Shown: positions 43,316-45,613 of the stretch, piece after piece
Layout: every line of letters begins with the position of its first letter
Numbering within the stretch: position 1 is the first letter of the stretch
Assembly (NCBI GenBank): GCA_020845575.1
Contig: JADLFL010000076.1
Span: forward strand, 1 to 64,000
Reading direction: 5' to 3'
DNA length: 64,000 nt
Source: Acidobacteriota bacterium
GTDB taxonomy: Bacteria > Acidobacteriota > Vicinamibacteria > Vicinamibacterales > Vicinamibacteraceae
The notes under the pieces: generated by a model
What the model saw: the letters and a program-made list of their open reading frames with translations, nothing else
Databases searched by the model: none
Told to the model about the DNA's origin: nothing
Program-made: the position numbers and the translations under genes

Positions 43316-45613
43316 ATGCCGATTCGGTATGACCGCGCGGGCACCGGGTTAGTCGGGGTCGCATTGGCTCTGGTGATGGTCGCTGCAGGCTGTGCCTCGC
43401 CCGTGCGACTCACGTCACGACCGGTGGGCGTGGCGCCCTCCGTTCGCACGGAGCCCACTCGGGTTCCGATGGTCACCGACCGCCCCACGGTGGGCGTGGC
43501 CTTCGGCGGCGGCAGCGCTCGCGGCATCGCCCACGTCGGCGTCCTGCGCTGGCTCGAGGAGCACCGCGTGCCCGTGGACGTCGCGGCCGGCACCAGCATG
43601 GGTGGCCTGATCGGCGGGGCCTTTGCGACCGGCATGGACGCCGCGGAACTCGACGCGCTGCTGGACTCGCTCGATTGGGACGAGTTGTTCGGCTCCTCGA
43701 CCTTCGCCTACAAGAACATCCGCCGCAAGGCTGACGGACGCGCGTTTCCCTGGCGTCTCGAGTTCGGCCTCAAGCACGGCATCGTCGCCCCGACGTCGCT
43801 CAACAGCGGTGAGTACGTCGAGCTGATGCTGGCGCGAATCGCGGCGCCATACCACGAACTGGAGTCCTTCGACTCGCTTCCGACGCCGTTCCGGGCGGTG
43901 GCCGTCGATCTGGTGACCGCCAGACAGGCGGTGCTGGCACGCGGGTCGCTCGCCGACGCGATGCGCGCCACGATGTCGATTCCGCTCATTTTCCCGCCCG
44001 TCGAGACCGATGGGCAGGTTCTGGTCGATGGCGGGGCGATGAACAATGTCCCGGCCGACGTGGTCAAGGGCCTTGGTGCCGATCGGGTCATCGCGGTGAG
44101 CGTCGGCGACCTGTCGGACCGCGAGGCTCTGAGCCACACGCTGCTCGGCGTCGCCGGTGCCACGCTCGACGCCATGATGCGATCGACCACACGCGCGTCG
44201 TTGGAGTCGGCCGACGTCGTCATCAACGTCCCGCTGCAACGCTACGGCTCGCTCGACTGGCGCCGCGCCGACGAACTGGTCGAAGAGGGCTACAAGGCGG
44301 CCGAGGCAATGCGCGAGCAATTGCTGCCGCTCGCGGTGAGCGAGGCCCAGTACGACGTCTGGCGACGCGGGCGTCAGGATCGTCGGCGATCGACCATCGC
44401 GCAGCCGGAGTTCGTCCGGCTCGAAGGGTTCGGCAGCAGCGATGCCGGCCGTCTCGACGTGCTGCTCGCGCATCACGTGGGCCGGCCGCTCGACATCACG
44501 TCGATCGAGAAGGACCTGGCGGAGCTGACCGGCCTGGATCGCTACGAGACCATCACCTGGAGAACCGCGCGCGACCAACGCGGGCGGCTCGGCCTGCTCG
44601 TGCGCGGCCGGGCCAAGACGTACGCGCCGCCGTTCATGATGCTCGGTGGCAGCCTGGAGAACACCACGTCCAACGACTTCCGCGTCACCGCGACCGCGCG
44701 CTACCTGGGCTTCGACGTCGGCGGATCCGGCGCCGAACTCCGCATCGACGGCACCCTCGGCTCCGACCCCGCCGTTTCGGTCGATTGGTATCGACCACTC
44801 GGCAGTACGCCGTTGTTTGTCGCACCCTACGCCCGCATCGGCTCGGACCAGGTCAACTTCGCGCAGGACGACGTCGTCTTTGCGCGATATGGGCTGGTCA
44901 CCAGTGCCGCGGGCGCCGCTGTCGGCGTCAACCTCGGCGCGGTCAGTGACCTGCGCCTGGGGGCATTCATCGGTCGGACCCGCGCGTCCATCGAAATCGG
45001 CGATCCGGGCCTGCCCGAGATCAGAGGACGCGAATCGGCGGCCGATCTCACGTGGCGTCTCGACACGCAGGACAGCCCGGTGGTGCCGTCGCGCGGGGTC
45101 AACACACTGGTCCGTCTGTCGCACACCATCGATTCGCCGGACATCTCCATCGACAGGCAGACGGTGTTGAGGTCTTCGTCGTTCACGCAGCTGGCGTCAT
45201 CGATCACGTCGTTTCGGGCGGTCGGTCCTCACGGCCGACTGTTCCTGTTCGGTGCGCTCGGGACCACGCTCGACGGAGAACCGGCGCCGACGTCGCTCTA
45301 CGCACTCGGTTCGACATTCCGGCTCGGCGCCTACGCCTCCAACGACATCGTCGGCCGGCACGCCTGGAACGCGACGGGCGGCTATCTCCACCAGGTCGGA
45401 CGGTTGCCGGACTTCCTCGGAGGTCCGATCTTCGTTGGCGGCTGGCTCGAGAACGGCGACGCCTTCGCCGCCTGGAAGGACGCCGGCTGGCGCACCAACG
45501 CCAGCGTCGGAGTCATGATGGACACGTTGCTCGGGCCCGTGCTGGTTGCCGGGACCGCCGGTTTCGATGGCCGCTGGCGCACCTACTTCGGCGTCGGTCG
45601 CATCTTCCGCTGA
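43316..45613 (+). CDS. PlpD-like patatin fused to POTRA and outer-membrane barrel (type Vd secretion)
   Basis: A 765-residue protein. A signal with lipobox-like VAAGC (Cys26), then the patatin domain with oxyanion loop GGGSARG (64-70), nucleophile GTSMG (S94) and DGG (D238), so lipase activity is likely. After residue 420 come a POTRA-like segment (VRLEGFGSSDAGRLDVLLAH) and a 16-strand barrel ending in the aromatic VGRIFR. This order matches PlpD, the type Vd autotransporter that displays or releases a phospholipase. The start ATG at 43316 gives a good signal peptide; an upstream ATG near 43250 is less likely. No partner gene needed. Confidence 0.85.
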   Translation: MPIRYDRAGTGLVGVALALVMVAAGCASPVRLTSRPVGVAPSVRTEPTRVPMVTDRPTVGVAFGGGSARGIAHVGVLRWLEEHRVPVDVAAGTSMGGLIGGAFATGMDAAELDALLDSLDWDELFGSSTFAYKNIRRKADGRAFPWRLEFGLKHGIVAPTSLNSGEYVELMLARIAAPYHELESFDSLPTPFRAVAVDLVTARQAVLARGSLADAMRATMSIPLIFPPVETDGQVLVDGGAMNNVPADVVKGLGADRVIAVSVGDLSDREALSHTLLGVAGATLDAMMRSTTRASLESADVVINVPLQRYGSLDWRRADELVEEGYKAAEAMREQLLPLAVSEAQYDVWRRGRQDRRRSTIAQPEFVRLEGFGSSDAGRLDVLLAHHVGRPLDITSIEKDLAELTGLDRYETITWRTARDQRGRLGLLVRGRAKTYAPPFMMLGGSLENTTSNDFRVTATARYLGFDVGGSGAELRIDGTLGSDPAVSVDWYRPLGSTPLFVAPYARIGSDQVNFAQDDVVFARYGLVTSAAGAAVGVNLGAVSDLRLGAFIGRTRASIEIGDPGLPEIRGRESAADLTWRLDTQDSPVVPSRGVNTLVRLSHTIDSPDISIDRQTVLRSSSFTQLASSITSFRAVGPHGRLFLFGALGTTLDGEPAPTSLYALGSTFRLGAYASNDIVGRHAWNATGGYLHQVGRLPDFLGGPIFVGGWLENGDAFAAWKDAGWRTNASVGVMMDTLLGPVLVAGTAGFDGRWRTYFGVGRIFR

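What the first reader, a model, noticed from the sequence alone, without database searches (positions are those of the whole stretch)
43316..45613. Type Vd patatin autotransporter with a lipobox-like signal
Patatin, POTRA and barrel follow each other as in PlpD, with all catalytic motifs intact. The signal ends VAAGC, so the passenger could be lipid-anchored, an unusual mix with a type V barrel. PlpD itself is known from Pseudomonas; such proteins in soil acidobacteria could act in predation or lipid scavenging.
Basis: partly seen in the sequence, partly recalled or inferred. Interest (0 to 1): 0.5.

Follow-up and report, generated by a model that had tools for sequence, protein, structure and literature searches.

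The report
Probable lipid-anchored outer-membrane patatin lipase
This soil-acidobacterium gene encodes a lipid-cutting enzyme fused to an outer-membrane barrel, and in a small group of related species it seems to carry an extra fatty anchor at its front end, which fits an enzyme that works on the cell's own outer membrane from inside better than one shown on the cell surface.

Summary
The anatomy is right: ATG 43316 to stop 45613 encodes 765 aa with a signal peptide, a Ser94/Asp238 patatin domain, one POTRA and a 16-strand Omp85 barrel. The second AlphaFold2 model (pLDDT 85, pTM 0.81) matches the PlpD crystal domain at Z 36 and TamA/BamA at Z about 27. It is a PlpD-family "PL-Omp85".

The lipobox reading is supported, not proven. 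Cys26 is the only cysteine here and in the three closest relatives (one cut at a contig end); the four form one clade (100/98). It aligns in 4 of 4 within signal peptides that otherwise share no residue, through both Cys codons. A broad lipobox pattern occurs in 15 of 186 PL-Omp85 N-termini. Against it: the strict pattern fits only 1 of the 4, not the window's AAGC.

The "type Vd surface autotransporter" reading is not the best default: published work puts PlpD's patatin domain in the periplasm, with a proposed role in outer-membrane lipid homeostasis; FplA work disagrees. Best reading: an outer-membrane phospholipase whose N-terminus is also tethered by lipid to the inner leaflet. A new variant of a known kind; lipidated Omp85s (TamL) and type Va autotransporters are known.

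The parts
43316..45613 (+). complete gene of the PL-Omp85 protein, 765 aa plus stop
   Evidence: start modestly supported by the change in codon-position GC at 43316
43316..43390 (+). signal peptide, residues 1-25 (R4 and R7 in the n-region, hydrophobic stretch L12-V22)
   Evidence: best hydrophobic 10-residue mean 2.95
43382..43393 (+). lipobox-like A-A-G-C26; Cys26 is the only cysteine of the protein
   Evidence: strict consensus not met at -3
43394..43480 (+). linker of about 30 residues between Cys26 and the patatin domain, predicted disordered
   Evidence: mature residues 1-23 have pLDDT under 50
43481..44332 (+). patatin-like phospholipase domain, residues 56-339
   Evidence: Z 36.3 to PlpD 5FYA, rmsd 1.9 over 247
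43505..43525 (+). oxyanion-hole motif GGGSARG, residues 64-70
   Evidence: motif role recalled
43595..43597 (+). catalytic Ser94 in GTSMG
   Evidence: invariant in 50 of 50
43670..43810 (+). lid region (residues about 119-165) with LEF in the column of PlpD's lid motif ISF; left unaligned in most of the stand-alone or cNMP-linked patatins compared
   Evidence: predicted strand at mature 123-126
44027..44029 (+). catalytic Asp238 in DGG
   Evidence: invariant in 50 of 50
44411..44614 (+). single POTRA domain, residues about 366-433
   Evidence: b-a-a-b-b; TamA alignment from mature 338
44633..45610 (+). 16-strand Omp85 barrel, residues about 440-765

Best explanation
It is a PL-Omp85 (PlpD-family) outer-membrane phospholipase with an added N-terminal lipid anchor. 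Steps: Sec export (inferred from the signal peptide); diacylglyceryl transfer to Cys26 by Lgt and cleavage before Cys26 by LspA (inferred; both genes are in the genome); transfer to the outer membrane by the Lol route and barrel folding by BAM (inferred); POTRA and patatin domain kept in the periplasm beneath the barrel (inferred from published PlpD topology); the Ser94/Asp238 dyad cleaving phospholipids of the outer membrane's inner leaflet, with the lid contacting the barrel (inferred from published PlpD and FplA work). The roughly 30-residue disordered linker would let the acylated Cys sit in the inner leaflet, so the enzyme domain is held to the membrane at its N-terminus as well as through POTRA and barrel. 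On the tree made here the anchor arose once, in a small Vicinamibacterales clade.
For: Architecture. Anchor: Cys26 is the sole Cys in the window protein, and the aligned Cys is the sole one in the other 3 of the clade (L044 is cut by a contig end). 0 of 32 aligned signal-peptide columns are invariant, while 4 of 31 columns from Cys26 to residue 55 are: Cys26, Ala27, Pro29, Arg49. The Cys codon is TGT in two and TGC in two. Cys makes up 103 of 4398 residues (2.3%) in the signal zones of 176 other members. The four form one clade, 100/98, one change on the tree. Lgt, LspA and LolA are in the genome. The residue after Cys26 is Ala, not Asp (recalled E. coli outer-membrane sorting rule). Periplasmic patatin, dimer, lid and raised phospholipids in a plpD mutant: PMC11116518. 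No OMPLA-family (PF02253) hit in this genome.
Against: No signal-peptide predictor was available. The strict lipobox [LVI][ASTVI][GAS]C is met in 1 of 4 (L044 VAGC); the window (AAGC), L045 (GAAC) and L046 (TVAC) fail at -3. Over 186 N-termini the strict pattern occurs in 10, so it does not mark this clade. A signal peptidase I site after Cys-Ala ([GA]-C-A|[AS]) fits all four. Only four sequences carry the trait, and shared descent makes them not independent. FplA was reported surface-exposed in E. coli (PMC5724010). Topology, dimerisation and activity were not tested here.
Confidence: 0.6

Rival explanations
1. An ordinary PL-Omp85 whose signal peptide is cut by signal peptidase I just after Cys26-Ala27; the cysteine is lost with the signal and there is no lipid anchor.
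For: [GA]-C-A|[AS] fits a signal peptidase I site in 4 of 4 (sequences). The strict lipobox is met in only 1 of 4. 130 of 176 other members have an [AVST]xA site after the hydrophobic stretch by a crude pattern. L100 and L103 have a Cys at -2 of an ACA|Q site where relative L105 has Trp, so such a Cys can be incidental.
Against: The Cys is the only one in each protein, aligned in 4 of 4 and kept through TGT/TGC changes while the rest of the signal shares no residue. A discarded -2 residue should not be conserved. The hydrophobic stretch runs almost to the Cys. The stretch from Cys to patatin, 30-31 residues, is longer than the middle half (7-18) of the 130 members with a site.
Confidence: 0.22
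2. A lipidated type Vd autotransporter: patatin displayed outside, anchored by its lipid in the outer leaflet, acting on other cells or environmental lipids.
For: The family was first described as type Vd secretion (cited in the passages seen of PMC4104836 and PMC4319957). FplA was reported protease-accessible and active on whole E. coli cells (PMC5724010 passages). Lipidated type Va autotransporters NalP and SphB1 are known (PMC8151025 passages).
Against: PlpD patatin resides in the periplasm, docked to the POTRA and dimerised, and export of the folded domain through the barrel is judged unfavourable (PMC11116518). The lid motif that binds the barrel from inside is recognisable here, though weakly kept in the family.
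Confidence: 0.1
3. The start codon is misplaced and the real protein has a different N-terminus without this signal.
For: In-frame upstream starts exist (TTG 43103; ATG 43252, read); I saw no clear Shine-Dalgarno before 43316 by eye.
Against: Any upstream start keeps the lipobox. A downstream start at Met52 would remove the export signal from an outer-membrane barrel protein. Codon-position GC is 0.77/0.77/0.70 before 43316 and 0.72/0.52/0.72 over 43316-43390. With the starts that I chose, the three relatives have their Cys at residues 21, 28 and 22.
Confidence: 0.05

Closest known systems
PlpD of Pseudomonas aeruginosa (prototype PL-Omp85, 'type Vd')
   Same: Patatin-POTRA-16-strand Omp85 barrel; Ser/Asp dyad; lid region. 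Patatin E 2.5e-57, Z 36.3.
   Different: The window protein has a lipobox-like Cys26 and a linker of about 30 residues before the patatin domain. The 2024 PlpD paper has no occurrence of 'lipoprotein', 'lipobox' or 'signal peptide' in its main text; PlpD's own N-terminus was not examined here.
FplA of Fusobacterium nucleatum
   Same: Same family and phospholipase A1 by the paper's description (PMC5724010 passages); not compared by sequence here.
   Different: No lipid anchor in the passages seen; the paper's one 'lipoprotein' is in its reference list. Reported surface-exposed in E. coli.
TamL, the lipidated TamA-like Omp85 of Bacteroidota
   Same: Omp85 barrel protein with an N-terminal lipoprotein signal; a variant of the predicted lipidation site (C21G) could not be obtained (PMC12045153 passages).
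   Different: Three POTRAs in the 'Lipo' family (PMC4104836 passages) and no patatin domain.
NalP and SphB1, lipidated type Va autotransporters
   Same: Lipobox signal on a protein with an outer-membrane barrel (PMC8151025 passages).
   Different: Classical autotransporters, a different passenger and barrel family (recalled).
OMPLA (PldA)
   Same: Dimeric outer-membrane phospholipase with which PMC11116518 compares PlpD.
   Different: Acts on outer-leaflet lipids held between its subunits (PMC11116518); no PF02253 hit in this genome.

Membership tests
PL-Omp85 (PlpD family) | N-terminal patatin domain with Ser-Asp dyad | tested here: met
PL-Omp85 (PlpD family) | POTRA next to the barrel | tested here: met
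   b-a-a-b-b in the model; BamA/TamA structure matches cover it and BamA profile matches start at 320. Pfam POTRA in only 7 of 50 relatives and not in the window protein
PL-Omp85 (PlpD family) | 16-strand Omp85 barrel | tested here: met
   16 strands; Z about 27 to BamA/TamA; Pfam Omp85 in 41 of 50 relatives, not in the window protein
PL-Omp85 (PlpD family) | dynamic lid with beta-signal-like motif binding barrel strand 1 | tested here: inconclusive
   LEF in the motif column; hydrophobic-x-hydrophobic in 37 of 50, hydrophobic-x-aromatic in 17 of 50; strand predicted at 123-126, its partner not seen
PL-Omp85 (PlpD family) | homodimer with periplasmic patatin domain and phospholipase activity | not testable with these tools
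   published for PlpD (PMC11116518)
Type Vd autotransporter | patatin passenger translocated to the surface | not testable with these tools
   contested for PlpD and FplA (PMC11116518, PMC5724010)
Bacterial lipoprotein (signal peptidase II) | lipobox with invariant Cys, broad pattern | tested here: met
   4 of 4 clade members; the broad pattern is recalled from PROSITE
Bacterial lipoprotein (signal peptidase II) | strict lipobox [LVI][ASTVI][GAS]C | tested here: not met
   window AAGC fails at -3; 1 of 4 clade members passes; 10 of 186 family N-termini pass (pattern from PMC8151025)
Bacterial lipoprotein (signal peptidase II) | Lgt, LspA and LolA in the same genome | tested here: met
Bacterial lipoprotein (signal peptidase II) | acylated Cys | not testable with these tools
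   needs mass spectrometry or labelling
TamL / Omp85 lipoprotein family | three POTRA domains and no patatin | tested here: not met
   one POTRA and a patatin domain

The most novel reading that the evidence does not exclude
A lipidated clade of PL-Omp85 in which the acyl anchor changes how the enzyme works: the lipid either fixes the patatin domain under the barrel so that its placement and activity no longer depend on dimer and lid alone, or is flipped to the outer leaflet and carries the patatin domain outside, giving a lipidated type Vd protein. Either way it would be the first lipidated PL-Omp85 that I know of and a natural probe of the disputed topology.
Probability: 0.3. Interest if true: 0.65.

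Novelty: new variant of a known kind. Interest (0 to 1): 0.4.

Why it matters
Whether the patatin domain of PlpD-like proteins ends up outside or inside is disputed, and the final place of the lipid in lipidated type V proteins is stated to be undetermined (PMC8151025 passages). A member that carries its own lipid tag at the patatin end lets one ask where that end sits by following the lipid, and asks why one lineage added a second membrane anchor to an enzyme that already has a barrel.

Tried and rejected
First AF2 job with 5 sequences (A1) was poor (pLDDT 52, pTM 0.37). The second, with 29 rows (A7), gave 85.4/0.81; only 9 of its rows are full-length proteins (one, L239, matches the family barrel weakly), the other 20 cover the patatin part alone. 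No SignalP or LipoP was available.

Synteny: four neighbouring proteins of the window (sugar-binding lipoprotein, apiosidase-like, glutamate dehydrogenase, DUF5916) gave no tblastn match at 1e-8 in 23 loci (three of them repeats of others); four loci have up to 5 kb of flank, the rest about 1.5 kb or less. No operon or partner was inferred.

Rejected: lipobox as a family-wide trait. 15 of 186 assessed N-termini match the broad pattern: 12 of 110, 1 of 16, 1 of 30 and 1 of 30 in the four phylum samples. Besides the clade of four these are 11 scattered cases, among them two near-identical pairs, many with a possible signal peptidase I site by eye. The strict pattern occurs in 10 of 186, only one of them in the clade. 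L168 is the most lipobox-like outside the clade; not followed up. Dropped before the count: L085 (too short), L096, L161 and L178 (N-terminus not covered). The lowest-scoring places listed were not fetched, and for the other phyla only the best loci (at most 30 per search) were read. My first survey used a cruder domain start, and a regex that left 41 loci unassessed; one search replaced both.

Rejected: predation or scavenging role, since nothing found bears on it. Papers: no description of a lipidated PL-Omp85 was found with the searches in this library. Listings were read; eight papers were opened: PMC11116518 (abstract, sections 8 and 10, passages) and, by passages only, PMC4104836, PMC8151025, PMC5724010, PMC12045153, PMC4319957, PMC3222651 and PMC6604945. 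This is not proof of absence.

Full report
The gene. The frame 43316-45613 on the + strand encodes 765 aa. Pfam finds Patatin at residues 62-249 (E 1.4e-30) and nothing else in this protein. phmmer against PDB sequences finds the crystallised PlpD patatin domain over 56-339 at E 2.5e-57. Ser94 (GTSMG) and Asp238 (DGG) are invariant in 50 of 50 aligned homologues. So 'all catalytic motifs intact' is right.

POTRA and barrel. These are too diverged for Pfam in the window protein itself, so relatives and structure were used. Of 50 members of alignment A2, 41 match Omp85 and 7 match POTRA at E <= 0.01. The A2 profile matches F. nucleatum BamA 9CCG at 2.1e-13 over 535-711, other BamA chains from position 320 on at 5e-9 to about 1e-6, and TamA over 539-709 at 5.9e-7. 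A first AlphaFold2 job on 5 sequences was poor. A second with 29 rows, 9 of them full-length, gave mean pLDDT 85.4 and pTM 0.81, with a beta-alpha-alpha-beta-beta POTRA and 16 barrel strands; the only stretch under 50 is mature 1-23, in the linker. Its patatin part aligns to PlpD 5FYA at Z 36.3, rmsd 1.9 over 247 residues; the rest aligns to TamA 4C00 at Z 27.3 over 361 residues (model 338-740) and to BamA at about 27 (Foldseek). This is a PL-Omp85 protein. I had no coordinates, so barrel closure and domain arrangement were not measured.

The lipobox-like signal. The precursor begins MPIRYDRAGTGLVGVALALVMVAAG|CASPV. The three closest relatives, L044 (71%), L045 (69%) and L046 (60%), end their signals VAG|CAAPV, GAA|CAAPL and TVA|CAAPV. 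Cys26 is the only cysteine of the window protein, and the aligned Cys is the only one in each of the three (L044 lacks its C-terminal end at a contig edge). In the alignment of the four, 0 of 32 signal-peptide columns are invariant; of the 31 columns from Cys26 to residue 55, Cys26, Ala27, Pro29 and Arg49 are. The codon is TGT in the window and L046 and TGC in L044 and L045. In 176 other family members with a hydrophobic stretch, Cys makes up 103 of 4398 residues (2.3%) of the signal zone. These facts argue that the Cys is kept by selection, which a lipidation site explains and a residue thrown away with the signal does not.

Against this: the strict lipobox quoted in PMC8151025 is met only by L044 of the four; the window fails at -3. 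Over all 186 assessed N-termini the strict pattern occurs in 10, so by itself it does not single out this clade. A signal peptidase I cut after Cys-Ala is compatible with all four. L100 and L103 show that a Cys can sit at -2 of such a site where a relative has Trp. No predictor was available. I put lipidation at about 0.75.

Distribution. In the class search 73 of 193 genomes have some match at E <= 0.001, including other patatins. In the phylum sample 89 of 396 have a match at E <= 1e-60. With profile A1 at E <= 1e-50, matches occur in 17 of 249, 98 of 296 and 48 of 398 genomes of the phyla of G543, G544 and G545, taken as Gemmatimonadota, Bacteroidota and Pseudomonadota from the titles of L006, L040 and L011. 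N-termini could be assessed in 186 fetched loci: 110, 16, 30 and 30. The broad lipobox pattern occurs in 12, 1, 1 and 1. The window's group is the only one that I see with an aligned Cys plus a conserved CA[AS]P[VL] start. In a 35-row tree built from the patatin start onward, the four are one clade at 100/98 and the label needs one change; the next branches, L047 and L063, have signals ending in ASAQ and AGAQ. Two same-genus genomes (G187, G188) also carry another PL-Omp85 (L095, L096), and a third (G190) has only that other type (L053); these form a separate clade. The N-termini that I could read for it (L053, L095, and the fragment L097, probably the front of L096) show no lipobox match. The window's genome, 95.8% complete, shows only this one full-length copy.

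Host. That the genus is Luteitalea is my recollection from the size of G187, not a result. The genome has Lgt and LspA side by side, two LolA matches, and six Omp85-family matches, and no OMPLA-family hit.

Mechanism. Hanson et al. 2024 (PMC11116518: abstract, sections 8 and 10, and passages read) found the PlpD patatin domain in the periplasm, crosslinked to the POTRA, in homodimers, with a lid that moves along barrel strand 1, and many phospholipids raised in a plpD mutant. They propose outer-membrane lipid homeostasis at the inner leaflet. The lid column that holds Ile-Ser-Phe in PlpD holds Leu-Glu-Phe here, and the model puts a strand there; in 50 relatives the motif is hydrophobic-x-aromatic in 17 only. 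On the other side, FplA was reported surface-exposed in E. coli (PMC5724010, passages) and B. fragilis PlpD-like proteins are described as type Vd secreted (PMC4319957, passages). An N-terminal acyl group placed by Lol would sit in the inner leaflet, which fits a periplasmic patatin domain without further assumption. Shown here: architecture, conserved sole cysteine, single origin on the tree. Inferred: lipidation, topology, activity, role.

Known kinds. Lipidated Omp85 proteins exist: TamL, whose predicted lipidation site could not be mutated (PMC12045153, passages), and the 'Lipo' family, 386 of 513 with a lipid anchor (PMC4104836, passages). Lipidated type Va autotransporters NalP and SphB1 exist, and the place of their lipid is stated to be undetermined (PMC8151025, passages). 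What seems new is the combination with a PL-Omp85; I found no description of it in the searches listed under Tried and rejected.

Noticed in passing
window 50121-52685 (-): A second Omp85 protein about 4.5 kb away: 854 aa, Pfam Omp85 E 7.6e-54 and four POTRA stretches, BamA-like.
   Followed up: partly
window 49532-50113 (-): Small secreted protein (193 aa) with a classical lipobox LPG|C, no Pfam family, directly behind the BamA-like gene.
   Followed up: no
window 40503-41531 (+): Periplasmic sugar-binding protein with lipobox VSG|C, showing ordinary lipoproteins nearby.
   Followed up: no
L053, L095, L096: Same-genus genomes carry a distant PL-Omp85 paralogue (about 41-42% to the window protein); G187 and G188 have both types, G190 only this one, and it was not seen in the window's genome.
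   Followed up: partly
L159, L163, L165: PL-Omp85 of genomes taken as Gemmatimonadota nest inside Vicinamibacterales groups on the tree: horizontal transfer or mis-binned contigs.
   Followed up: no
L237, L272, L278: Full-length PL-Omp85 genes on contigs filed as viral in IMG/VR, possibly host DNA.
   Followed up: no
L168, L090, L091: Isolated PL-Omp85 with lipobox-like signals outside the window's clade (MVIG|C; ASS|C): possible independent gains.
   Followed up: no
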